DNA of 64,000 bases from Butyribacter intestini (GTDB lineage Bacteria; Bacillota; Clostridia; Lachnospirales; Lachnospiraceae), in assembly GCA_001414325.1 (NCBI GenBank), contig LLKB01000005.1, positions 939,285-1,003,284 of the forward strand. The letters are read 5' to 3'. A program made the position numbers and the translations under genes. Of this stretch, positions 2,882 to 16,615 are shown piece after piece (position 1 is the stretch's first letter; the number at the start of each line of letters is the position of its first letter). Below the pieces are notes generated by a model. It saw only the letters and a list, made by a program, of their open reading frames with translations, made no database searches and was not told the origin of the DNA.

Positions 2882-3211
2882 TTATAAACCATGCTTATTT
2901 CTTCTTTTTGCTGCTTCTCTATAAACCTGTTCATCAGTTCTTGCAGAAACAACAATAATCTTCATTACTCCATCCACACGCTCAATCTTATAAACAACTC
3001 TTATGCCTAAGTTTCTAAATTTTATTTTCATTAAATTAGTAAGATTTGTACCACTTTTATTACCTAAAGGCTTTCCATATCCGCCCTCCTCAACAGGCAA
3101 TGGATTTTTGCTTACTTTTGAAATGCCTTTTAATACTTGTATTTGAGCCGAATGGTCGAGTTTCTTCATATCATTTTCCGCTTCTTCTAAAAACTCAATA
3201 TTCCATGTCAT
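2882..3211 (-). CDS. RelE/ParE-superfamily toxin
   Basis: 109 residues, the expected size for a RelE-type toxin. It starts MTWNIEFLEEAENDMKKLD, the family's first strand and helix, and ends in basic strands (GIRVVYKIERVDG, MKIIVVSARTDEQVYREA). RelE toxins cleave mRNA on the ribosome and ParE toxins poison gyrase; the sequence alone does not separate these activities. The start codon overlaps the antitoxin stop by 4 nt (ATGA arrangement), so the two are translationally coupled as in a type II toxin-antitoxin operon with the antitoxin first. Confidence 0.85.
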   Translation of the reverse strand: MTWNIEFLEEAENDMKKLDHSAQIQVLKGISKVSKNPLPVEEGGYGKPLGNKSGTNLTNLMKIKFRNLGIRVVYKIERVDGVMKIIVVSARTDEQVYREAAKRRNKHGL

Positions 3212-3531
3212 TCTATATCTACATCCTCCGCATCCAAAAGTTCATCTTCACTTATCCCAAGCTCATTCATTACAGTATCAAGTGAAACCGTTTTATTATT
3301 CCCATCAGCCTCCAAACGCCTGTTAGCTTCCAATAAAAGATAATAATCTTCTTCTATTTCAGTTAATCTTGTATATTCCTCAGGTGATAATATAATCGCC
3401 GATGGCTGATTATTTTTTAAAACTATCAGTTCATTTTCAGAATGTAATCTGTCAAATATCTTAGCCGCCTGACCTTTATTAAACTGCGAAATAGGAACAA
3501 GACTTTGTAATATATCTGCTGCAATAGCCAT
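3208..3531 (-). CDS. Phd/YefM-family antitoxin
   Basis: 107 residues from the ATG at 3531, which has GAGG 6 nt upstream; a longer frame to 3621 is leader sequence. The N-terminal half is a Phd/YefM DNA-binding fold: VPISQFNKGQAAKIFDRL, then ELIVLKNNQPSAIILSPEEY. The acidic C-terminus (ELGISEDELLDAEDVDIE) is the expected toxin-binding tail. It should neutralise the RelE-type toxin downstream and repress its own promoter. The 5' leader contains the TGTGCAGAAATGAGG motif also found before a chemoreceptor gene and malF. A MITE-like repeat lies ~170 nt upstream of the start. Confidence 0.88.
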   Translation of the reverse strand: MAIAADILQSLVPISQFNKGQAAKIFDRLHSENELIVLKNNQPSAIILSPEEYTRLTEIEEDYYLLLEANRRLEADGNNKTVSLDTVMNELGISEDELLDAEDVDIE

Positions 3532-3537
3532 AATAAC

Positions 3538-3552
3538 CCTCATTTCTGCACA
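3538..3552 (-). promoter_or_regulatory. Shared 15-nt leader motif TGTGCAGAAATGAGG, copy 1
   Basis: The motif ends in the Shine-Dalgarno of the Phd-type antitoxin gene, 6 nt before its ATG. Identical copies with identical spacing lie at 27013-27027 (chemoreceptor) and 42265-42279 (malF). Upstream, an imperfect hairpin built on GATTTGTG/CACAAATC lies at ~3593-3625. Confidence 0.55.
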
Positions 3553-3703
3553 CATTTTTTGCATAGTATCAAATATAATATATTTTCCACTTAAGATTTG
3601 TGCCAAGTGTGCAAAACACAAATCCGTTACTTTATTTTACTTATATTATATTCAGATTTGTAACAAAAATCAATAAATATTACTTTTAATTTTCTATTAT
3701 ATT

Positions 3704-4422: not shown

Positions 4423-5001
4423 ATGCAAAACAAAAACAATGATATTTCCGATAAGGAAATAATATCATTATTTAACGAACGTTCTGAACAGGCAATAAGC
4501 AAGACAAGTGATAAGTACAAAAATCTTTGCTTTAAAATTGCAGATAACATACTAAACGACAAACGAGACAGTGAGGAATGTGTTTCAGACACATGGCTGG
4601 CTCTATGGAACAATATTCCGCCCAAGTCACCAAATCCCCTTAAAGCCTACATATGCCGTATTGTCAAAAATCTTTCTCTTAAACGCTACGAATACAATTC
4701 GGCAGGCAAGAGAAAAAGCGAATATGAGGTGTCACTTGACGAACTCAACGATTGTCTGGACAAAAATAATGATACTTTAAAACAGATAGAACAAAAACAG
4801 CTCATTGAAACCATAAATGTATTTTTGAAAAAGCTGCCAAAAGAAAAACGCATCTTATTTATAAAAAGATACTGGTTTATGGAGTCTGTTAAGGAGCTCG
4901 CAAAAGATTACGGAATATCTGAAACAGGGATTTCCATGCGGCTTTCAAGAATACGCAGCGAACTTAAATCTCATTTGATAAAGGAGGGTTATTATGACTG
5001 A
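4423..5001 (+). CDS. ECF-type RNA polymerase sigma factor
   Basis: 192 residues. Region 2 spans ~20-90 (CFKIADNILNDKRDSEECVS, DTWLALWNNIPP, then YICRIVKNLSLKRY). The region 4 helix-turn-helix spans ~125-185 (LPKEKRILFIKRYWFMESVK, GISETGISMRLSRIRSELK). ACGAGG precedes the ATG, and a GTGCCG/CGGCAC hairpin lies directly before that ribosome site. The stop overlaps the start of the downstream membrane protein by 8 nt, indicating coupled expression of sigma factor and partner. It is a different subgroup from the sigma factor at 1229-1765. Confidence 0.9.
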   Translation: MQNKNNDISDKEIISLFNERSEQAISKTSDKYKNLCFKIADNILNDKRDSEECVSDTWLALWNNIPPKSPNPLKAYICRIVKNLSLKRYEYNSAGKRKSEYEVSLDELNDCLDKNNDTLKQIEQKQLIETINVFLKKLPKEKRILFIKRYWFMESVKELAKDYGISETGISMRLSRIRSELKSHLIKEGYYD

Positions 5002-6496
5002 TAAGGATTTATTTAATGCGATAAATGACTGTGATGACAGTTTTATTGAAGAAACGATAAATGACTGTGATAAAAAATTTATTGAAAAAACGGCAAATAA
5101 ATATGATGAAAAATTTACCGAAGAAACAACAAATGAACAGACCAATAATTTTAATAATAAACAAAAAGAAATAAATGGTTCGGCAATAACACCGGGAAAA
5201 AATTTCCGCAGAAATGAAAAATCTGATAAACCAAACAACAGACCGTCATTTATAAAAAGATGCCTGCCATTCACAGGACTCCCACTTATAAATGCCGCCG
5301 CCATCCTTATACTCGTGCTTGCTGTCGGATTTGGTGCTGCTGCCGCAACATCCGGCAAATTTCACAACTGGATTTTTACGGCATTTTCAAAACAAGACAT
5401 ACAAAAAGCCGAGCTTAACACTTCTGCACCCGACAAAATTTCTTCTGATAACGGACAGAGTACGGCTTCAAATCCTGACAATAACATAGACATAAAAGCC
5501 GACAAAAATAACCATCTGTCTCTTGGCAAAAATATCGACCTTGTCGGAGATAAAGAAAGTTTCATATACAAATATCACAAAAATGGCGATGACGAGATAG
5601 TAGACGAGGTATATTCCATTCAGGATAATGGTCTGTCAAAACTTGCGATAAAAACATTTTCAGGTACTTATTATGGAAGCAGCTTTTCTTTTGATTATTC
5701 TGTTATAAATAAAGAGATATTTGCATTTAACCAGACCGGAACTTTAGACAGCGTAGACTATGTCATGGACGGTGATACCGTTTATGCCTATTTCTCAAAA
5801 GTCAAAGGTGATACTATACTAAAAAGCAGTGTCGCAAAGCTGAACCTTAAAACAGGAATAATAGACAAATTTACGGATGATAACAAAATATGCAACACTA
5901 AAATGTCTCCTAACGGAAAAATGATATTATTTAATTACCGTGCTAAGGGATACTGGACCGCCTTAGATACATCGACAGGCAAAGAGATAAAAATCCCCGG
6001 CATAGACGGATATAATCATGAAAGCCAGATAAAATTTATTGACGATTACCATGTACTGTCACTCTTAGTAATTTCCACGGGAAATAATGCAAAGACATAC
6101 AGTGAGCAGGTTTGCACAAACCTTATAGACCTCACAACCGGAAAAACTCTACACACTTACAAGGATTATGGAGAGATAAATGTCTTATGGAATTATAAAT
6201 ATAATGAAAAAAATAAATCATTGAAAGTTTACAATATAACAAATAAAAACAGTTTCACAATTCCTGACATGAAATCAGAGGATGCAGCTATAGCTGATAC
6301 AAACGGAAACTATGTACTTTTCGGTGACCTCGAGGAGCCTGACACATTCTGTCTATGCAACCTTGACACACATAAATATATCAAATTTACGATACCAAAA
6401 GAACTTCGTTCAGATATAGAAATGTACCTCTCCGCCGTTAAAAGCAAAATGCTCATAACCGACGGAAAGGATGCCTATCTTGTGCAGTGTCCGTAA
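4994..6496 (+). CDS. Large membrane-anchored partner of the ECF sigma factor (anti-sigma/sensor candidate)
   Basis: 500 residues, overlapping the sigma gene by 8 nt, with AAGGAGGG 6 nt before the ATG. The cytoplasmic ~95 residues contain three degenerate repeats of the form D-x-x-F-x-E-x-T. One membrane segment follows (~97-117, AAAILILVLAVGFGAAAAT), then ~380 extracellular residues. The outer part has repeated short strand motifs (KLNLKTGIIDKF, ALDTSTGKEIKIPG, LIDLTTGKTLHTYKDYG, CNLDTHKYIKF). These resemble blades of a beta-propeller; that is inference. The gene order fits a sigma factor held by a membrane sensor. No classic zinc anti-sigma motif is visible. Confidence 0.72.
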   Translation: MTDKDLFNAINDCDDSFIEETINDCDKKFIEKTANKYDEKFTEETTNEQTNNFNNKQKEINGSAITPGKNFRRNEKSDKPNNRPSFIKRCLPFTGLPLINAAAILILVLAVGFGAAAATSGKFHNWIFTAFSKQDIQKAELNTSAPDKISSDNGQSTASNPDNNIDIKADKNNHLSLGKNIDLVGDKESFIYKYHKNGDDEIVDEVYSIQDNGLSKLAIKTFSGTYYGSSFSFDYSVINKEIFAFNQTGTLDSVDYVMDGDTVYAYFSKVKGDTILKSSVAKLNLKTGIIDKFTDDNKICNTKMSPNGKMILFNYRAKGYWTALDTSTGKEIKIPGIDGYNHESQIKFIDDYHVLSLLVISTGNNAKTYSEQVCTNLIDLTTGKTLHTYKDYGEINVLWNYKYNEKNKSLKVYNITNKNSFTIPDMKSEDAAIADTNGNYVLFGDLEEPDTFCLCNLDTHKYIKFTIPKELRSDIEMYLSAVKSKMLITDGKDAYLVQCP

Positions 6497-6784: not shown

Positions 6785-7309
6785 TTATTTGTTATTGTAA
6801 CGATTACATTCTCTTTCAAGTTTCTCAAAATTAAGACATCTGCTTTTTCCTTTATAATTAGATTCACTAACACATAATTTATATAAACAATTAGCTTTAT
6901 TAATAATTACCTCTGCATTTTTCCTGCACCATGTCAGTTCATCAATACATAACTGCTTATAATGCTTTTGGGCTATCGTATCTCTCTTATCCTCTTTAAG
7001 ATTTATTTTTATTAACTGTTTATCCTCCACCGGAATCATGAGATTATAATTTAAAACCCCCAACAATTTGCCTTTCTTATCAAATATCTTGTCAAAATCA
7101 GCTTTAGGACTCATTTTCTTATGCTTTTCTACTGGATGTGATAATGGTATAAGATATTTGTGTTTATTACATATTACAACTGTACCTACATATATTCGAT
7201 GTTGCTTCCCAATCTGTGGTGAAACTGAGGAAACTCTGTCATCAATATTATGTAAATTTCTAATATATTTCATATCTATACGATATAAATTCAGTCTTTC
7301 CTGTTTCAT
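6785..7309 (-). CDS. toxN: ToxN/AbiQ/CptN-family endoribonuclease toxin (type III toxin-antitoxin)
   Basis: 174 residues, the family's usual size. The family blocks appear in order: NLYRIDMKYIRNLHNIDDRV, IYVGTVVICNKHKYLIPLSH, VEKHKKMSPKADFDKIF, then KLLGVLNYNLMIPV, followed by a helical C-terminus. In ToxN, AbiQ and CptN this fold is a sequence-specific RNase that cuts its own antitoxin RNA and host mRNA and is held inactive by the processed RNA; several members give phage resistance. AAGGAG lies 6 nt before the ATG. The 130 nt upstream hold a promoter, a structured RNA and an intrinsic terminator, the standard type III layout. The gene reads in the same direction as the pilus operon ending 180 nt upstream. 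Confidence 0.9.
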   Translation of the reverse strand: MKQERLNLYRIDMKYIRNLHNIDDRVSSVSPQIGKQHRIYVGTVVICNKHKYLIPLSHPVEKHKKMSPKADFDKIFDKKGKLLGVLNYNLMIPVEDKQLIKINLKEDKRDTIAQKHYKQLCIDELTWCRKNAEVIINKANCLYKLCVSESNYKGKSRCLNFEKLERECNRYNNK

Positions 7310-7324
7310 ATATCTCCTTAAATA

Positions 7325-7422
7325 TTAAAAGTGGCTATGCCAAAAAACATAGCCACTATGAAGAATCACCAAAGACGATTCTTACGCTTTTACAACCTCC
7401 ACTTATGGTAGGACTCACCTTT
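7325..7422 (-). ncRNA. toxI: Candidate type III antitoxin RNA (ToxI/CptI-like)
   Basis: On the minus strand, a ~95-nt transcript starts just after a -10 element (7429-7434) and ends in a strong hairpin with a T run (GTGGCTATG/CATAGCCAC, 7331-7356). Two related segments start GGTGAGTC and GGTGATTC about 49 nt apart, suggesting one full repeat plus a truncated second, near the ~45-nt unit known for CptI. A second stem, AAGAATC/GATTCTT, is visible. The terminator before the toxin start should limit read-through, as in other ToxIN loci. Exact ends and repeat phase are inferred. Confidence 0.75.
7331..7356 (-). terminator. Intrinsic terminator between antitoxin RNA and toxin
   Basis: 9-bp stem GTGGCTATG/CATAGCCAC with an 8-nt loop, followed on the minus strand by TTTT. 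It lies ~20 nt before the toxin ATG. Partial termination here sets the RNA:toxin ratio in known type III systems. Confidence 0.85.
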
Positions 7423-7428
7423 ACTATT

Positions 7429-7456
7429 ATAATACCAAAATCTGAAAAATAGTCAA
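7429..7456 (-). promoter_or_regulatory. Promoter of the type III toxin-antitoxin locus
   Basis: Minus strand: -35 TTGACT (7451-7456), 16-nt spacer, -10 TATTAT (7429-7434). An overlapping TATAAT (7426-7431) would give a 19-nt spacer. It lies 36 nt after the stop of the upstream gene, so the locus has its own start site. Confidence 0.75.
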
Positions 7457-7491: not shown

Positions 7492-10400
7492 TTAGTCAAG
7501 TTCAAACATCTGTTTCTTTATCATATTAAGTGTTGTATAACCAGGTTCTTTAACCTCCTTACTCATCAGTTTAAATATTATCTTACAACGGGATGCATCG
7601 CTTAGATACTTCTTCGGATAGTCAAAGTAGTATATATGGTCACGACTTAATGTGTACGACTTAGATACACTTTCGCTTACACTCTTACCTGTATCTTTTC
7701 TGTATATCTTATCACCGGTGATATAACTATCTGTATCTCCACTTTCTGTTCCATCAGTTGCGGGATAATATATCGAACAGGTAAATTTAGAACCGGTCAG
7801 ATTTTCATCAGTAGGTCTGAAGTAAACTCTTATCGTTCCATCAGATTTTTTTCCATATTCTTCCTCTGATGTTATCTGGTATATTCTGCTGTTCTCATCT
7901 ATCTGCTCCGCATTTTGAACTTCAACATACGGGCTCTGATAAGATGCTCTATAGGCAGCTATCATCGTATTTACAAAAAGTTTTGCTTCCATATCATTAG
8001 TCACCGTCGAATGTCCTACGCTTGAATAAAATACATTTCCCTTACTGTAAATATAATAATTATTTGCTGTATCATTAGGTGACACTCCATAGGCATGTGC
8101 ACTCTGAGTGGTATATCCCCGATTATTATTTTTACCATCATCATCCAATGTGTACCATACCGTCACCTCAGAGTCCTCCATATTAAGCTGGTAATACTGG
8201 CTGTGTGTTGTTGCCACATTAAATTTGTCCTTATCTATATGATATGGATACGATGTTATCTGACCGTCATTTACCTTGCTTATCTTAGTCGTACAATCAT
8301 TGTCATTACTAAAACCACAATTTTTTGAATTTCTGTTATTACTGTTATTATTATCCTTATATACAGGATTTCCGTCTACTCCGGTTATCATATACCGGTA
8401 CGGTACTTTTTCATCATATGCACCATTATAACCTAATCGTCTCAGTGCCACATATGTATATCCGTGGAGAGCATCAAGAGTATTTCCTGCAATATCCTTA
8501 ACAGTATCATAAGCTCTTTCTTTCTGGTAATTTATGAGTATATTTTTATCATTCTCCGTCATTGCCGTTTTAGCAGGATTTCCGACTGCTTTATAACGAT
8601 TCATTCCCATCACATCACGCAGCAGTGCATTTGCAGTATAGCCGTATATTCCTTCACCTACATCGTTTAAAGATGTAATATCATGCGTAAACAATACACT
8701 CTTTTTCTGTGCTATAAAATATTTGATAAAATCAACTGCACCATGCTCATTTGAAATATCTTCCAGACAGTACATATCTCCAAATCCAAATATAAACATA
8801 TTGTAATCTTTTAACTTATTTCTTATAACATTATTTTCGTCCGTTAAATTATAATTTTTCGGATTTTGTTTTCCTGTATCAAACGAAATTTCTTTTGAAT
8901 TATCAAACTCAAAATCATTGTCTGTCTTATCATGATATTCCTTAAATATCTGCTCAAACTCCTCCACCGTCATAGTGTCAACGGTTATCTTGTAGTCCTC
9001 AATATTCTGATAATATTTTTTAAATATCGCACTCGTGCTTAAGTCTAACATTCCGTCTGTCACTCTATTAGCTTTCGCCTTTTCAGGATCAGGCATAATC
9101 TGCAGCACATTTACTTTCTTTTTATCTGAATCAGAACTCTTCGCTGCTGCCGAACAGCCGGTCTTAACAAATCTTACGCTTGAATTGTCAACATCATAAA
9201 TAACTATCTTCCAGCTTATAAGACCTACATACTCTTTATCAAGCTTAAAGTTCTCATTTGAAAATATTCTGCTCTCACCATTTTTCAATGCGACAGCTTC
9301 AAATTCACTGTCATCTTTTCCCAGTGATGAATATACACTCTCGCTTTCCGTAAATTTACTGTCCTGATTTTTATCAATATAAACCTTGTAAGCATATCTG
9401 ACGCTTTTTGCACTATCGTCATCACTCTGTGCTTTTTTATAAGTTACCGTGAACTTAAACGGCAATATCGCTCTGCCATCCGAATCTTTTTCAAGATAAT
9501 TTGGATGTGTTATTTTATTGCTGTTATTTCCTGTTCCTGTATCTCCATTATATTTTCTTGGCATTTCTGAAAATTCTACCGACACACTGTTAGTTGAATT
9601 TATTGCTTTGACAATTCCGTTTGAATCACTTTCACTGTAAATTCTGTTTCCATTATACGCAGAATCAGCTTCAAAATCAGTTTTTATAAAGTCACTTATA
9701 TTTGAATATTGGTCTACATAAGTTGTATCATTATTGTAAAGGCTTTCCTCCATAACGACCGGTCTGCCTGACTTGACAAAATCTTTGAGTTCCTTTTCCT
9801 TTATCGCTGTTATATCATTGCCCGGATATCTTAACTCAGTCGAATTAACCGCTGCTTTTTTTATCACAGACCACAAATATTTAACAGACCTGTCTTCTTT
9901 AATTCCTTTCAATGAAATCTTCTGCTCACTGCTTGTTATCTTATCTCCGGTATGGAAATAAATTTTTCCATTCATTGATTTATCATTCCATACAGTCATG
10001 CCATTTGAATTTTTGTTGTAAGCACCGGAATCCATTCCCATATATATCATGTCATAAGTGCTGTTTAAATCCTCAGTTCTTCCTATAAACTCCGCAGTTG
10101 TCATATGTGTAATCTCAATCTTACCGTCATATTTTGATAATACACCATTTGTGAGTATTCCTCTGACATCCTCCTCCGTCAGTTTATAGTCGGAATCAAC
10201 CTGATTTACATTTGTCGCCGAATCTTTCTGTTTTAAGCCTACACTCGGTTCTATATCGAGAACTTTTACACTATCCTTTTCTAACTTTATCTCATTATTA
10301 TTAGAATTGCTGTGTATTCCAAGTATATAGCGGACAGCATTTGACGGAGTCTCCTTATAATTAGCTTTTTCATTCTTAGCTTTCTGAGCAGCTTCTCTCA

Positions 10401-12114
10401 CTTCTTTATCACTGCTCTTTAATGCTTTTTCAATCTCTTCGTCTGTTCCGAATCGGCTGTCAAGATACTCCTTTACACTTTCATAATATCCATCAAACTT
10501 ATTCTTATTAGGATTCGTTGCACTTCCCTGATTCATATATGACTGTGGAAGACTACTGTCAGAATTATACACATATATATGATCCCTTACCCACGGTCTG
10601 TACTGGCTAAATTCAAGATGCGTTTTATATTTTTCCCATGCCTCGTCTTTTGTCCAATAGCTGTACACATCCCAATTATAATAGTAGTCATTTCCCTGCC
10701 AATATTTCTTCTGTTCCGTGTCAAACAATAAAAATGTATAAGAACACCAATACTTAGCTGCATCACCTGTTTGCAAAGTATCTACTCCCTCTGTTTCTCC
10801 ATTCTTATTTGTTATTGTTTTTATCTTAGGATTATCCTTGTCAAAATAAAGTTTATTAAAAGCCTTTGAATCCATACTGTAAAGCATTAAAATCAACTTA
10901 TATACATTATTATCACTCGCATTAGAACTCTCTATAGTCTTATATTTCTCTCCATTATTTTTTATTTGCAATTTCTGGAGATTTTGATCATACACCTGAA
11001 CCTTGACTTTTTTATTTCCGTTTGCACCATCATGGGTTTTAACATCCATTATGATTCCTGCATAATCAGTTTCTGCCGTAACTTTCTTATATATTTTTTC
11101 AGTATTTTCCCACGATATATCATTTCCTACAAAAGTCTGCTTATTTCCATAATCAGAACCAGTATATGTCGGACTTTCAGAAGTTCTTCTGTAATTATCA
11201 TTTTTCCATATGTTTATCAGGTCATTGCCAAAATGAGTTTTCGGATTGACATAAATAAGATTTGAGCAATCAATCCATGCTGAATTTTTCTTTAATTCAG
11301 ACGGCGTTATAGTCTTTATCACTATTGAAAACTTGTCAGCCTCCTCCTGCGTAAGACCTAAGCTGTCCTTTAAAAAATAATCACTGTTCTCAAAATTATA
11401 ATATGCGTGTGTTATCAACGCCCTGTCAGCATCGTCCTTATCTGACTTTCTCTTTGTATATAATCTGTCACCTTTATTTTTTAAAACAGAAATATCATCT
11501 TCAAAATTTATTCCTTCATATTTACCTTTTTCAAAATCATTTACGGTATGCCATATTATATCTCCCTGATTTTTTCCTGATTTCACGATATTTCCGTCTG
11601 AATCCTGTTTAAAATATCCCTGATTTTCTCCTACTTTTTCATAATAGCCCTTAAGAGTTATATCAGCCCAATATTTTCCGGGAGCCGAATCATAATTTTT
11701 CGGATTTCCTTCTTCTTCATCCGGGAAAAAATAGCATATGTTCTGCGTGACCTTTGCTCCACTTGCACTCTGTACCGTCCTTAAATCTCCTCTGCCATAC
11801 ATCTCTTCAACTTTTACCGGTTCACATCCGCTTATAAGATAACCTATCTCTGCAAATTCATTACAGGGTACTATCTCTAGTATTAAAAAAGGGTTTTTCT
11901 TTGTTCCGACTTCCGCCTTTGTCGTTCCATCTCTTTTTTCTTTCGGAAGCTGGGCATAGTTATCAATAACTCCACGCGAAACAACTTCTTCCTTTTCCGT
12001 TTCATCCGCATTAACTTTCATATTTTTCATATGAACTGCATAAATTGAAATTCCTGCAAAAAGAGCAAGACATAATGCTGCACATAATAAATATTTAATC
12101 TTATTTTTTAACAT
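7492..12114 (-). CDS. Very large secreted protein of the pilus operon, DUF5057-like
   Basis: 1540 residues. An N-terminal signal/anchor (YLLCAALCLALFAGISIYAV, ~9-28) is followed by a fully hydrophilic exported region. The start is supported by GGGGAGG 7 nt upstream. Three modules begin with a similar hydrophobic strand plus acid/proline: FLILEIVPCNEFAEIGYL (~76), VKVLDIEPSVG (~615) and VNVLQIMPDPEK (~1003). In the last two an MT-x-x-EF motif follows about 50 residues on (HMTTAEFI, TMTVEEFE), then a Rossmann-like strand (YDMIYMGM, YNMFIFGFGD). The first strand resembles the Lachnospiraceae DUF5057 family, recalled without a search. It is the last gene of the pilus operon, 18 nt after a minor prepilin, so it may be a pilus-tip or surface component. 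Confidence 0.7.
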   Translation of the reverse strand: MLKNKIKYLLCAALCLALFAGISIYAVHMKNMKVNADETEKEEVVSRGVIDNYAQLPKEKRDGTTKAEVGTKKNPFLILEIVPCNEFAEIGYLISGCEPVKVEEMYGRGDLRTVQSASGAKVTQNICYFFPDEEEGNPKNYDSAPGKYWADITLKGYYEKVGENQGYFKQDSDGNIVKSGKNQGDIIWHTVNDFEKGKYEGINFEDDISVLKNKGDRLYTKRKSDKDDADRALITHAYYNFENSDYFLKDSLGLTQEEADKFSIVIKTITPSELKKNSAWIDCSNLIYVNPKTHFGNDLINIWKNDNYRRTSESPTYTGSDYGNKQTFVGNDISWENTEKIYKKVTAETDYAGIIMDVKTHDGANGNKKVKVQVYDQNLQKLQIKNNGEKYKTIESSNASDNNVYKLILMLYSMDSKAFNKLYFDKDNPKIKTITNKNGETEGVDTLQTGDAAKYWCSYTFLLFDTEQKKYWQGNDYYYNWDVYSYWTKDEAWEKYKTHLEFSQYRPWVRDHIYVYNSDSSLPQSYMNQGSATNPNKNKFDGYYESVKEYLDSRFGTDEEIEKALKSSDKEVREAAQKAKNEKANYKETPSNAVRYILGIHSNSNNNEIKLEKDSVKVLDIEPSVGLKQKDSATNVNQVDSDYKLTEEDVRGILTNGVLSKYDGKIEITHMTTAEFIGRTEDLNSTYDMIYMGMDSGAYNKNSNGMTVWNDKSMNGKIYFHTGDKITSSEQKISLKGIKEDRSVKYLWSVIKKAAVNSTELRYPGNDITAIKEKELKDFVKSGRPVVMEESLYNNDTTYVDQYSNISDFIKTDFEADSAYNGNRIYSESDSNGIVKAINSTNSVSVEFSEMPRKYNGDTGTGNNSNKITHPNYLEKDSDGRAILPFKFTVTYKKAQSDDDSAKSVRYAYKVYIDKNQDSKFTESESVYSSLGKDDSEFEAVALKNGESRIFSNENFKLDKEYVGLISWKIVIYDVDNSSVRFVKTGCSAAAKSSDSDKKKVNVLQIMPDPEKAKANRVTDGMLDLSTSAIFKKYYQNIEDYKITVDTMTVEEFEQIFKEYHDKTDNDFEFDNSKEISFDTGKQNPKNYNLTDENNVIRNKLKDYNMFIFGFGDMYCLEDISNEHGAVDFIKYFIAQKKSVLFTHDITSLNDVGEGIYGYTANALLRDVMGMNRYKAVGNPAKTAMTENDKNILINYQKERAYDTVKDIAGNTLDALHGYTYVALRRLGYNGAYDEKVPYRYMITGVDGNPVYKDNNNSNNRNSKNCGFSNDNDCTTKISKVNDGQITSYPYHIDKDKFNVATTHSQYYQLNMEDSEVTVWYTLDDDGKNNNRGYTTQSAHAYGVSPNDTANNYYIYSKGNVFYSSVGHSTVTNDMEAKLFVNTMIAAYRASYQSPYVEVQNAEQIDENSRIYQITSEEEYGKKSDGTIRVYFRPTDENLTGSKFTCSIYYPATDGTESGDTDSYITGDKIYRKDTGKSVSESVSKSYTLSRDHIYYFDYPKKYLSDASRCKIIFKLMSKEVKEPGYTTLNMIKKQMFELD

Positions 12115-12132: not shown

Positions 12133-12657
12133 CTATCTCAATCTGTTTCTTACATTTATCGTGTTTTCAATGTTATATTTCTGACTTCCCCTTTTAAGTG
12201 TCATTGTAAGTTCAACACTCGACGGTGTGCCACCATCAACATTCGCCTTAAATTCTTCTATATGCTCTCCTATGCAGTTTTCCTCTTTTTCATCTGCGGC
12301 ACTGTATGTCAATGTATCATTATCTATATCAACATTATTAAATGACTCCATATAAAGTTTTCCTGATTTGAGCCATATAATCTTTTTTGTCGTATTTATC
12401 ACTGCTTTGTCCTGTGGTATCTTATAGATAGAAAGTTTCTTCCCTCCGTCCTCAACCTTAATCCTGTTTCCCTCCATTATCCATTTGCCGACCTGTTCCA
12501 TGAGTACCTGTGTCTCTGTCTGTATGTCAGCCGTATCAGAAGTGTACTGATAATCTTTTTGTGCCGTTCTTATCAACAATGTGGTCGCACCTATGATTAT
12601 ACTTGACATGGCTATGGCAATAATCAGCTCAACCAGCGTTATTCCTCTGTTTTCCAT
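12133..12657 (-). CDS. Minor type IV prepilin (PilW/GspJ-like)
   Basis: 174 residues with a short type III signal peptide: MENRG, then ITLVELIIAIAM with the conserved glutamate at mature position 5. This is the processing site of the prepilin peptidase encoded at 19262-20023. The hydrophobic helix runs to about residue 28 and is followed by a soluble pilin-type domain. GGAGTG lies upstream of the ATG. It sits 29 nt after the preceding minor prepilin. Assignment to the J-like class is from size and position only. Confidence 0.8.
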   Translation of the reverse strand: MENRGITLVELIIAIAMSSIIIGATTLLIRTAQKDYQYTSDTADIQTETQVLMEQVGKWIMEGNRIKVEDGGKKLSIYKIPQDKAVINTTKKIIWLKSGKLYMESFNNVDIDNDTLTYSAADEKEENCIGEHIEEFKANVDGGTPSSVELTMTLKRGSQKYNIENTINVRNRLR

Positions 12658-12686
12658 ATCTTTTCGTTCACTCCTCTCTTTTTATG

Positions 12687-13193
12687 TCACTCCATTATAT
12701 GCCGTCCTGTTTCTTTTACTAGTTTTATCTTATATTCTGAGTTTCTCTTAAATATCACCGCCGACACATCTGACTGAAACTGTACCGATTTGTTATAGTA
12801 GATATTTATGAATTTATCTCCTTTTATCTCCTCTTTTGAACCATTTTTTTCCTGAAATATCTCAATCGAGGCTGAACCAAGTTTTGTCCCTGTATCATCA
12901 AATACCGAACTGTCAAATGCCGTAATATCACTTGTCAAAATCTTCATATAGCATCCGTTATCTGTCTTATATATGTAAAGATGCGGTATATCTGTCTTGC
13001 TCATCGTCTTTACCTGCAGCTTATCAAGTGATGTATATACCTGATTTGCCGCCTGTCTGACATTTACAGACTTTAGATGCCCCATATATAAAACCGTAAA
13101 TGAAGCAAATATCACGAGTATGGCCATAACTATTATAGTCTCTATCAAGGTGAAACCGGTATTGTTATTTGAAACTTTATTTTTTTCTTTCAA
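12687..13193 (-). CDS. Minor type IV prepilin (GspH/FimT-like)
   Basis: 168 residues with prepilin site NNNTG, then FTLIETIIVMAILVIFASF (glutamate at +5). The start codon is TTG at 13191-13193, with GAGGTGG 4-5 nt upstream; no ATG fits. The soluble domain continues HLKSVNVRQAANQVYTSLDK, typical of GspH/FimT-type minor pilins that prime pilus assembly. It is 21 nt after the PilX-like gene and 29 nt before the next minor prepilin. Confidence 0.82.
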   Translation of the reverse strand: MKEKNKVSNNNTGFTLIETIIVMAILVIFASFTVLYMGHLKSVNVRQAANQVYTSLDKLQVKTMSKTDIPHLYIYKTDNGCYMKILTSDITAFDSSVFDDTGTKLGSASIEIFQEKNGSKEEIKGDKFINIYYNKSVQFQSDVSAVIFKRNSEYKIKLVKETGRHIME

Positions 13194-13214
13194 TTTTCCA
13201 CCTCTCGCTTTCTT

Positions 13215-15425
13215 TTAATTCTTCGTCCAGTTGTCATAATAAATATAATCTTTATTTTCAATAGCTCCAATCTCATTTGAGTTCATGTAAACCGAATCAT
13301 TTATTATGCCTGAAAACTTTTTGTCAGTTCTTGAAAGATCTTCTTTTATAAGGTCCACAACTTTGCTCTCGTCCGCATTTACCACAGCTCCTCCTGCAAA
13401 CGATATAGTTCCTCCGGATATTATTATTCCGTCAAAACCTCCGTCAACTCTTACATCTCCTGTAGCGATAACAATACCACCCCTGTACTCGTTTTTAAGT
13501 TCATATGGTGTATTACTATTTTCGTTATCGACAAGTATAACAACATTGTCTTTAGTTCCGTTCATATATTGCTCATTTGCTATATAAGAACCTGAAGCCG
13601 TATTTTCATTTACAAGCTTTTTTAATGCTGCACGGTTTATAAGATAATCAAACATTGGATTTTTTGTCTTATCATCAAGTCTTGCACCGGCAGCTTTCGC
13701 ACTGTCATGAGCAGTTGTAAGACCAAGCTGCAAAGCCTTATATCTCACCGCAAGTTTTGAAGATATATTGAAAAATGTACCGTTATTTTTCCATTCTGAC
13801 TCTGACAAATCTATATTTATATTTTTCTGCTTAAGTTCATTGCCGTCAATATTTTCAGCATCTTTATATAAAATATTTCCACCCAGACTTAAAATACAAT
13901 CCTCATCTACGATTATGGCATTATTGTCTGCGTAACTCTCCGCTTTTTTATTTACATTGCTTTTGTTGTCTTTATAATACAGCTTGAAAAATTCTTTTGC
14001 TTTATCAGCCTTTGCTGCATCTGTACCGTCAAAATTCAGATAATAATTTGCCATAGTCTCACTTGATATATCATCAATGTAATAATAAGGAGTCACCTGA
14101 TTTGTGCTGTCAAGCAATGATTTCAGCTTTTCTTCTGATACTGACAGATTATTTTCTTTTATGTAACTCTTTAATCCCTTGTCAGTAAATTTTAAATATT
14201 CTGCTGATGCATCTAAATAATTTTTTGATACATAATAGGCAAGCTGGTTTGTTCTGACTGAAAGGGAATCTCCCATGAGTATATCTTCATTCTGCTTATC
14301 TGCAAATAAATCCGTTCCTCTTGATATAAATGTTCTTCCTGATATCATAAGATCTGTAAGTCCTTTCATATCAAGTCTGCTTTTCTGACCATTTATCATA
14401 ACGGCACTGCTGTACTTTGCATCAAAGGTTTCCGGCTTAGCTGCATCATAATTTTTCTGAAAATTATATCCGTAATATCTTCCAGAAAGAGTTACTGTGC
14501 TGTTTTTTCCATTTAGAGAAAGGTCATCAGACACATAGCTGTTTCCGGTAATATTTACCTTTGCACCATTTTCTTTGCTTTCTGAATCTCCGGTTGTCTT
14601 TATATTTTCCGCCCATATCGAAGAGGATGCACTTGCACCTATCGTAAGTGATGTTCCGGCATTTGCCACTATGTCTCCCCTGGTTATGACCGTATCTGCA
14701 CTTACCGTTCCACTTCCGCCTAATTCACTTAATATTCCGCCTGCTCCGGCATAAACATTTCCATTAATTTTTTCTCCTGATGCATTAAATGTAACTGCAT
14801 TATCTGCTATAAGTGCATATTTCATAAACTCTGCCGGAGCAAAAGAATTTTTCATCTGAGGTGCTTCGATGGTTATGTCAGTTCTGATAGCAGTCTCATA
14901 TCCTGCTGCATCTTTGCATTTTATACTTATATTCTTAAAAGTAAATGTTCCCTCATTTTTATCTACTATATAATCAGCCGCATTCTCATCTGTTATGAGA
15001 TAATCCTGCTCTGCCGTATCACTCTCACTTATATATTTTTTTAACTTGTCAACATCGTATTTTCCTGCAATATCAATATTTTTATAATCCGCCTCAAGCT
15101 CATCAAGATATTTACTCTGAAAACATTTTGACAGACTTTCTTCTGACGATTTATATTTTTCATAATTTCCCAGCATATCACTGTACAGCTTTTTTATATG
15201 CTCTGCCGAGTCACTGCTTATGCCTGCTTTTATTTTATTAAGCACATCCTCCGTACCATAAAAATTTCTTTTTGAACTGCTCTCCACTTCTTTCATCTCT
15301 ATATTAGTTATGGTTATCTTCGTAACGATAAGTGCTATAACACTCGCAAATGTGAGTATGATAAGGACTGCAATAAGAACCGAGCCTTTGTCCTGCTTTG
15401 AAAATAATCGTATTTTTTTCATCAT
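13215..15425 (-). CDS. Large PilX/GspK-like minor pilin with a polymer-forming (bactofilin-like) repeat region
   Basis: 736 residues, far larger than a normal minor pilin. The N-terminus has KQDKG, then SVLIAVLIILTFASVIALI. The residue at +5 is alanine instead of glutamate, as in GspK/PilX-type tip subunits. Residues ~200-360 are glycine/serine-rich with short turns (INGNVYAGAGGI, VITRGDIVANAGTSLTIGAS, NITGNSYVSDDLSLNGKNS). The pattern recurs near the end (GGIVIATGDVRVDGGFDGII, ISGGTISFAGGAVVNAD). This suggests a beta-solenoid of the kind in bactofilins. The start overlaps the upstream prepilin stop by 4 nt. It probably caps the minor-pilin tip complex; that role is inferred. Confidence 0.75.
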   Translation of the reverse strand: MMKKIRLFSKQDKGSVLIAVLIILTFASVIALIVTKITITNIEMKEVESSSKRNFYGTEDVLNKIKAGISSDSAEHIKKLYSDMLGNYEKYKSSEESLSKCFQSKYLDELEADYKNIDIAGKYDVDKLKKYISESDTAEQDYLITDENAADYIVDKNEGTFTFKNISIKCKDAAGYETAIRTDITIEAPQMKNSFAPAEFMKYALIADNAVTFNASGEKINGNVYAGAGGILSELGGSGTVSADTVITRGDIVANAGTSLTIGASASSSIWAENIKTTGDSESKENGAKVNITGNSYVSDDLSLNGKNSTVTLSGRYYGYNFQKNYDAAKPETFDAKYSSAVMINGQKSRLDMKGLTDLMISGRTFISRGTDLFADKQNEDILMGDSLSVRTNQLAYYVSKNYLDASAEYLKFTDKGLKSYIKENNLSVSEEKLKSLLDSTNQVTPYYYIDDISSETMANYYLNFDGTDAAKADKAKEFFKLYYKDNKSNVNKKAESYADNNAIIVDEDCILSLGGNILYKDAENIDGNELKQKNINIDLSESEWKNNGTFFNISSKLAVRYKALQLGLTTAHDSAKAAGARLDDKTKNPMFDYLINRAALKKLVNENTASGSYIANEQYMNGTKDNVVILVDNENSNTPYELKNEYRGGIVIATGDVRVDGGFDGIIISGGTISFAGGAVVNADESKVVDLIKEDLSRTDKKFSGIINDSVYMNSNEIGAIENKDYIYYDNWTKN

Positions 15426-16615
15426 GGCATTTCTCCCTTCGTTCCATTAATGGTTAAGTATGGTTTTGCTGTACTATCCTTAGCCTTGCCCTTCTCATAT
15501 ACCTCTATTTTTATATTTGCAATATTTACCGAAGAAATATCAAACTTATCATCCTCATTATAAATCTGTGTTGATACACCATTGATATTTGAACTGTCAA
15601 GATTTGTATATATTGTATTTTCAAGTGTATTATCTTTATCAAGTGTCTTTAGTGTAATTGTATTTCCCGTGTCCTTTTTATTTTGACACAGTAAATGAAA
15701 TCCATATTTTGTATCAAATGGTGTTGTAAATTTGGACTTTTCGATTGACAAAGTATCATGTTCATTAAAGGTATGATACAACAGATAAATCTCTATCTCC
15801 CTGTCCTTTTTCATAACTCTCTGTTCTTTGATGATATATACCTCATAATCCGGCACACTGTATGAGGGAGCATCACCGGATTTTGCATTATATGTATATT
15901 TATATTTTACGCTTATGATGTTTGCATCCGTCAGACTGTTATCAATCTCTATAACTATCTCTCTGTGTATTCGTTCTTTCAGATTTTCATCACTAAGCGA
16001 TGCAGCAACATTAGCATTGTCACATTCTGCCATATATTTCATCCTAAAATGTGCAAATGCCTCATCATCCTGTCCGTTATCTATTGACAATCCTGAGTTC
16101 GCATTATTGAAACCACATTTCTTATTTGATGCATCCTGCACTTTTTTATCAGTAGAAACAGTCACTACCTCATCATAATTTTTTCCTATTTCATCCGCTT
16201 TTCCAATAAGCTTAATTTTTCCAACACCTTTTTCCTTTCCTGTCGTGCTATCTTCTATATTTAGAGTATTCTCTTCAACGCTAAAATTCTTAGCCGTCAG
16301 ATATGGTACTGTGTACTCGCCTGTATTGTCATCCTTTTTAATAAGAGTATCCTGTGCTTTTAACTCCTCCATCGTTTCCTGTGCAAACAAAGTTGCTTTC
16401 TGATTTTTTGACATCTGCACATTATGACTTACGGAGCTTCCAAAATAATTCAATAGCATTAATGTAAGTATAGCTAATATTGCCATCGAAACAACCACTT
16501 CGACAAGCGAAAAGCCTTTATCTGAATTGTCATATACAGTTTTTCTGTTTTTTTCATTCCCTGTCTCTATGTTATCCCGCGTCATTTTTTTTATATCTGC
16601 AATGCTATACATCAT
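15422..16615 (-). CDS. Type IV minor prepilin (PilV/GspI-like) with long leader
   Basis: 397 residues. The prepilin site is at residues 34/35 (NSDKG, then FSLVEVVVSMAILAILTLML), giving a long 34-residue leader. The ATGATG start is supported by GAGGTGATGA directly upstream. After the helix comes SHNVQMSKNQKATLFAQETM, typical of PilV/GspI pilins. The soluble part is longer than usual. It overlaps the next gene by 4 nt and follows pilO by 12 nt, so it belongs to the same transcript. Confidence 0.8.
   Translation of the reverse strand: MMYSIADIKKMTRDNIETGNEKNRKTVYDNSDKGFSLVEVVVSMAILAILTLMLLNYFGSSVSHNVQMSKNQKATLFAQETMEELKAQDTLIKKDDNTGEYTVPYLTAKNFSVEENTLNIEDSTTGKEKGVGKIKLIGKADEIGKNYDEVVTVSTDKKVQDASNKKCGFNNANSGLSIDNGQDDEAFAHFRMKYMAECDNANVAASLSDENLKERIHREIVIEIDNSLTDANIISVKYKYTYNAKSGDAPSYSVPDYEVYIIKEQRVMKKDREIEIYLLYHTFNEHDTLSIEKSKFTTPFDTKYGFHLLCQNKKDTGNTITLKTLDKDNTLENTIYTNLDSSNINGVSTQIYNEDDKFDISSVNIANIKIEVYEKGKAKDSTAKPYLTINGTKGEMP

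What the first reader, a model, noticed from the sequence alone, without database searches (positions are those of the whole stretch)
6785..7456. Complete type III toxin-antitoxin locus (ToxIN/CptIN-like) directly after the pilus operon
The sequence shows a ToxN/AbiQ-family protein preceded by its own promoter, a ~95-nt structured RNA and a strong terminator 20 nt before the toxin ATG. This exact order defines type III systems, where an RNA folds around and inhibits the RNase. Some members abort phage infection. A related CptIN locus is known from Eubacterium rectale.
Basis: partly seen in the sequence, partly recalled or inferred. Interest (0 to 1): 0.8.

Follow-up and report, generated by a model that had tools for sequence, protein, structure and literature searches.

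The report
One-unit RNA antitoxin for ToxN toxin
This gut-bacterium locus encodes a probable RNA-cutting toxin together with a small RNA that probably holds it in check, but instead of the usual string of repeated RNA units it carries only one unit followed by a conserved hairpin, a stripped-down layout shared by many related bacteria.

The parts
7429..7456 (-). promoter-like site: -35 TTGACT 7456-7451, -10 TATTAT 7434-7429 with TG before it (alternative -10 TATAAT 7431-7426)
   Evidence: similar promoter-to-unit layout in relatives
7386..7423 (-). single ToxI-like unit (antitoxin core); proposed pseudoknot helices S1 7419-7417 with 7409-7407 and S2 7413-7411 with 7400-7398
   Evidence: alignment A1; resembles the tandem units of L075, L081, L038 and of the Lactococcus AbiQ-type locus L128
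7388..7391 (-). A-run at the 3' end of the unit, inferred ToxN cleavage site
   Evidence: each of the four A positions kept in 90% or more of 59 rows; AAAAGC junctions in tandem relatives L075, L081 and L038; predicted unpaired 0.72 in the window
7361..7383 (-). conserved hairpin standing roughly where a second repeat would be; arms 7383-7374 and 7370-7361
   Evidence: 8 of 10 pairs with compensatory changes over 59 sequences; 8 of its pairs found unprompted by RNAalifold
7330..7357 (-). intrinsic terminator between antitoxin and toxin
   Evidence: folds
7314..7319 (-). ribosome-binding site AAGGAG
   Evidence: sequence
6785..7309 (-). ToxN/AbiQ-family protein (probable endoribonuclease toxin), 174 aa

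Best explanation
A reduced type III toxin-antitoxin locus of the ToxIN/AbiQ lineage. One promoter makes a ~95-nt RNA that begins at, or within a few bases of, the only ToxI unit, runs through a hairpin and stops at the terminator; occasional read-through makes the ToxN message. ToxN cuts once, in the A-run after the unit, discards the hairpin and terminator, and keeps the ~36-38-nt pseudoknot, whose two ends block two neighbouring ToxN active sites, as in the solved ToxIN rings. The hairpin takes the place of the missing second repeat: it keeps the cut site open and separates the unit from the terminator stem. Loss or shut-off of this short-lived RNA, for example when a phage takes over transcription, would free the RNase. 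Shown here: toxin family and predicted fold, single unit, covarying hairpin, a toxin clade nested among tandem lineages, selection on the toxin. Inferred: cleavage, neutralisation, ring assembly, the hairpin's role, phage defence.
For: Toxin family and predicted fold. No tandem repeat in the window, while the loci that I class as tandem score 13 to 73 by the same method (threshold set by me after seeing the scores). Exactly one unit match in 51 of 59 nearest relatives; 23 S, 31 T, 7 other, 1 too short among 62 loci of a family-wide draw. Hairpin covariation score 0.499 against at most 0.167 when slid; 98 compensatory cells against at most 24. Tree: 38 of 39 rows labelled S in one starred clade (97/80) without a tandem row, beside tandem rows L075, L079, L038, L081, L096, L102, L106. 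The A-run and the G after it are kept and AAAAGC also stands between tandem repeats; predicted mostly open. dN/dS 0.038-0.088 in five pairs of relatives. A single overexpressed CptI repeat, with bases added for processing, neutralised CptN fully (PMC4627078, passages).
Against: No expression, cleavage or neutralisation data. antiQ needed at least 1.8 repeats and ToxI-Pa 2.5 (PMC5086642, passages), so one unit might not suffice. The window unit's pseudoknot is not significant alone (p 0.15; 15 of 23 units tested reach 0.05); RNAalifold, which cannot draw pseudoknots, pairs the unit differently; in 24 of 59 rows the third S1 pair fails. Two residues aligned with catalytic ones differ: His for Ser53, Val for Lys55. 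Two S rows slightly beat their own shuffles for self-repeats (L009 11.0 against 10.5, L049 11.0 against 9.0). The S label rests on a motif fitted to this group, so single units with another core (L073) fell under 'other'; L022 and L118 were labelled S by hand, and the contig of L022 begins inside the unit.
Confidence: 0.7

Rival explanations
1. The mature antitoxin is longer, about 65 nt: the unit and the hairpin stay together and the hairpin itself contacts ToxN, so no cut at the A-run is needed and the complex may differ from the known triangle.
For: The hairpin is conserved in structure through the clade and keeps fixed sequence bits near its loop and base.
Against: The A-run with the GC after it resembles the junctions between repeats in tandem relatives and is predicted mostly unpaired; loop length and much of the stem sequence vary.
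Confidence: 0.2
2. A decayed or domesticated system: the array was lost, the toxin has a weakened active site and the remaining RNA is a relic or only a leader that controls toxin expression.
For: Replaced Ser53 and Lys55 equivalents in the window subclade; toxin-less copies of the RNA in other genomes.
Against: Low dN/dS in the pairs tested; promoter-like site, unit and hairpin kept among toxins down to 39% identical to the window's; Arg38, Lys62 and Glu124 in 38 of 38 S rows.
Confidence: 0.1
3. An ordinary tandem-repeat type III locus in which the hairpin is a worn second repeat, that is about 1.4 repeats of ~49 nt.
For: In the window the hairpin's 3' arm resembles the start of the unit (12 against a shuffled mean of 6.4, 1 of 100 as high); over 59 sequences the mean is 8.9 against 6.8.
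Against: Only 20% of 59 sequences reach p 0.05; the arm covaries with its partner arm.
Confidence: 0.05
4. A CptIN-family locus.
Against: E 0.16 for CptN against 2.2e-36 for ToxN; CptI is a 45-nt unit from two repeats (passages), while this unit resembles ToxI/antiQ units.
Confidence: 0.02

Closest known systems
AbiQ/antiQ (Lactococcus) and ToxIN of Bacillus thuringiensis, Pectobacterium and E. coli
   Same: Toxin family and fold; order promoter, RNA, terminator, toxin; a unit with helix positions like the AbiQ-type unit in L128; A-rich junction.
   Different: One unit instead of 2.8 (antiQ), 2.9 (Bt), 5.5 (Pa) or 3-5.6 (E. coli clusters) repeats (PMC5086642; PMC8860590; passages); an extra conserved hairpin; His and Val at two catalytic positions in the window's toxin.
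CptIN (Eubacterium rectale)
   Different: Toxin sequence not closely related; CptI is a 45-nt pseudoknot derived from two genomic repeats, in a heterotetramer (PMC4627078, passages).
Candidate structured RNAs HMP2_5421 (68 bp) and HMP2_3156 (106 bp) upstream of ToxN, human-microbiome screen of 2021 (PMC8040213, passages)
   Same: Length and position would fit unit plus hairpin, and unit plus hairpin plus terminator; Clostridiales.
   Different: The passages only suggest that they may be ToxI; unit number, hairpin and lineage are not discussed in them. Their alignments are in supplements that I could not open, so identity is unproven.

Membership tests
ToxN/AbiQ toxin family | significant match to the ToxN family profile | tested here: met
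   PF13958 146.4 bits against a cut-off of 25; PADLOC AbiQ 5.2e-32
ToxN/AbiQ toxin family | ToxN fold | tested here: met
ToxN/AbiQ toxin family | catalytic residues Lys33, Thr52, Ser53, Lys55 (E. coli numbering, PMC8860590 passages) | tested here: inconclusive
   Sequence alignment only: Arg38 and Ser57 conservative; His58 for Ser53 and Val60 for Lys55; Arg38, Lys62 and Glu124 in 38 of 38 S rows
[quoted passage not shown]
   consensus matches only, no transcription data
[quoted passage not shown]
   one unit match upstream of the toxin
[quoted passage not shown]
   S1 86.4% and S2 94.9% of cells paired in 59 rows but nearly invariant, so no covariation within the clade; S2 differs compensatorily between unit families, 15 of 23 units at p 0.05 or less, window unit p 0.15
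[quoted passage not shown]
   needs expression and cleavage assays
Rfam RNA families | match to one of the 4227 Rfam models | tested here: inconclusive
   No relevant match for the window stretch (E up to 5) or 8 loci (E up to 0.5); the AbiQ-type control L128 matched no antitoxin model either, so the test says little
CptIN | toxin closest to CptN | tested here: not met

The most novel reading that the evidence does not exclude
A clade-wide, self-sufficient 'one-shot' type III antitoxin: the 5' end is set by transcription start and the 3' end by a single ToxN cut, a dedicated hairpin replaces the neighbouring repeat, and in the window's subclade the toxin active site has been rebuilt (His and Val at two catalytic positions). 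The antitoxin-to-toxin ratio would then rest on terminator read-through alone, and the repeat array would be dispensable for type III function.
Probability: 0.4. Interest if true: 0.65.

Novelty: new variant of a known kind. Interest (0 to 1): 0.5.

Why it matters
[quoted passage not shown] A natural single-unit system would separate two questions that tandem arrays mix: whether processing of a multi-unit precursor is needed for assembly, and whether repeat number sets the threshold for anti-phage activity.

Tried and rejected
Hidden second repeat in the hairpin: 20% of 59 sequences beat shuffles at 0.05, the window among them; not enough. Alternative hairpin GCG with CGC competing with the main one: 44 of 59 can form all three pairs, but its covariation is no better than a slid version (0.196 against 0.214) and 31 of 500 shuffles reach it. 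Rfam: nothing relevant. Own genome: one ToxN, one strong RNA and one weak hit, E 0.39. Outside the family: of 391 genomes drawn from the class, 7 have an RNA hit at 1e-5, 3 in the family (own included) and 4 outside; of the 4, two are tandem arrays (L199, L202), one has a toxin most like a tandem one (L200), one only a piece of a single-unit-type toxin (L201). Phages: 2 records; viral contigs: 13 loci at 30-36% identity; their upstream regions were not examined. Record titles naming Bacteroides, Alistipes or Gastranaerophilales are perhaps mis-binned contigs; I draw nothing from them. In the rate calculation six of seven window pairs gave no dS (saturated) and the seventh, L005, gave dS 2.8.

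Rows and ends: of 65 single-match RNAs L079 was dropped as tandem, leaving 64, of which 59 were distinct as trimmed; I reset the ends of some by hand before the alignment. MAFFT shifted the L093-type rows by one column in the unit, which lowers the S2 counts (my reading).

Literature: Blower 2012, which defined the three families, is not held (recalled only). In the titles and abstract openings listed by searches, and in the passages I opened, I saw no single-unit type III antitoxin described; subscription papers and supplements could not be searched.

Full report

The antitoxin is not an array. Tandem Repeats Finder reports nothing at the RNA. A diagonal self-match score gives 7.0 for the window against 9.5 for the best of 30 shuffles; the loci that I class as tandem score 13 to 73, a threshold that I set after seeing the scores, and two single-unit rows slightly exceed their own shuffles (L009, L049). 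Of the 59 nearest relatives (upstreams printed) 51 have exactly one unit match. L038 has two in tandem, L039 holds two separate loci, and six have none: three at contig edges (L022, L040, L053), two by point differences (L043, L054), and L059.

How common. The set was found with the window toxin and is biased. In a draw of 397 genomes of the family, 63 have a ToxN match, in 81 match rows. I examined 62 of those loci: 31 tandem, 23 single-unit (the window included), 7 other and 1 with too little upstream. The 19 remaining rows, mostly partial or second matches, were not examined. 'Other' includes a single unit with a different core and no hairpin seen (L073, my reading), so reduction to one unit may have happened more than once. 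In a draw of 391 genomes of the class the RNA model found 7 genomes at 1e-5, 3 of them in the same family; of the four outside, two are tandem arrays and none was seen to be an intact single-unit locus.

One lineage. On a tree of 73 non-redundant toxins, 38 of the 39 rows labelled S form one starred clade (97/80) without a tandem row, next to tandem lineages; the exception, L118, is a very long branch. L118 and L022 were labelled S by hand. The simplest reading is one loss of the array followed by long persistence.

The hairpin. Fifty-nine distinct unit-plus-hairpin sequences align over 78 columns. RNAalifold finds 8 of its pairs unprompted. Counted on its own, 90.6% of cells pair, 8 of 10 pairs have compensatory changes, and the covariation score is 0.499 against at most 0.167 for slid versions; 0 of 500 shuffles reach it, which relatedness alone can inflate. 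It begins 4 nt after the A-run in the window, roughly where the next repeat begins in tandem relatives such as L075 and L081. The pseudoknot helices are nearly invariant within the clade and cannot be tested by covariation there. Between unit families the second helix changes in step: UCC/GGA, CCC/GGG, UCUC/GAGA, UCCUC/GAGGA. Of 23 units, 15 beat shuffles at 0.05; the window unit does not (p 0.15), and for two no structure was found within the limits of the search.

Ends of the RNA. In 61 of 63 single-unit loci the best promoter-like site has 9 or more of 12 matches, and in 57 of these its -10 box ends 5 to 11 bases before the first stem of the unit (3 lie at 24, 1 at 14); no shuffled control was run. 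Transcription should thus start at or within a few bases of the unit. The A-run at its 3' end is kept and predicted mostly unpaired (mean 0.75 over 61 loci, lowest 0.09, against 0.40 for the first 70 nt; a model without pseudoknots and without a control for A-richness). ToxN of E. coli prefers GAAAU (PMC8860590, passages); a cut in this A-run is by analogy.

The toxin is kept but altered. dN/dS is 0.038 to 0.088 in five pairs of relatives (dS 0.46 to 2.3) and 0.055 for the window against L005 (dS 2.8); six other window pairs gave no dS. Against the residues named for E. coli ToxN, the window has Arg38 for Lys33, Ser57 for Thr52, His58 for Ser53 and Val60 for Lys55. His58 with Val60 occurs in 17 of 38 S rows; Arg38, Lys62 and Glu124 occur in all 38. 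In E. coli, Lys55Ala abolished toxicity, so activity must be shown, not assumed.

Surroundings. The promoter begins about 35 bases past the stop of a 1540-aa DUF5057 protein, next to three genes with prepilin-type methylation motifs; the toxin gene converges with a sigma-factor gene and its neighbour. In the relative G008 that neighbour is 89% identical in protein, and DNA similarity (94% over the 306 bases compared) ends at about 6497, its stop codon; beyond it G008 carries another gene. G008 shows no ToxN, but that genome is only 63% complete. The locus therefore sits at a variable junction; an exact empty site was not seen. In the genus 3 of 28 genomes have ToxN, the own one included.

Toxin-less copies. 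Of 11 RNA-hit regions that I chose because no intact toxin was listed there, 10 gave no toxin match at 1e-3 and 1 a broken toxin. By eye L163, L167, L168 and L169 keep promoter, unit, hairpin and terminator, others have lost parts. They may be leftovers after toxin loss or free antitoxins.

What is known. Reviews and surveys describe type III antitoxins as repeats and use a tandem array as a criterion (PMC5086642 and PMC8860590, passages). A table of 45 gut type III loci lists 1.9 to 3.4 repeats (PMC6315513, section read). antiQ with 0.8 repeat was inviable and 1.8 worked, while a single CptI repeat, with bases added for processing, neutralised CptN. One paper lists structured RNAs of 68 and 106 bp upstream of ToxN in Clostridiales as possible ToxI (PMC8040213, passages); they may be this RNA, so the RNA itself may not be new. 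I did not see the single-unit anatomy, the hairpin or the lineage described in what I could read.

Verdict. The toxin belongs to the ToxN/AbiQ family; the locus fails the tandem-array criterion and is best called a single-unit variant of a type III system. That it works like one is likely but untested.

Noticed in passing
L163, L165, L166, L167, L168, L169 and others; RNA positions: Copies of the antitoxin RNA without a toxin gene in other family genomes, some with promoter, hairpin and terminator kept; one (L163) is followed by what I read as an acetyltransferase-like gene.
   Followed up: partly
L039:2886-3000 and L039:5491-5563: Two different single-unit RNAs lie about 2.6 kb apart in one contig, each before a ToxN ORF.
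   Followed up: no
L079 upstream of 1486: Tandem antitoxin with ~49-nt units that seem, by eye, to carry an extra hairpin inside a loop of the unit.
   Followed up: no
window 2882-3621 (-): A second TA-like pair: Phd/YefM-type antitoxin (3208-3621, 7.6e-10) and a ParE-like protein below the Pfam cut-off (2882-3211).
   Followed up: no
window 4423-6496 (+): Sigma-70-like factor followed by a 500-aa protein without a significant Pfam match, by eye membrane-anchored; DNA similarity to genome G008 ends at its stop codon.
   Followed up: partly
window 12133-16615 (-): Pseudopilin-like operon: three proteins with N-terminal methylation motifs next to a 1540-aa DUF5057 protein at 7492-12114.
   Followed up: no
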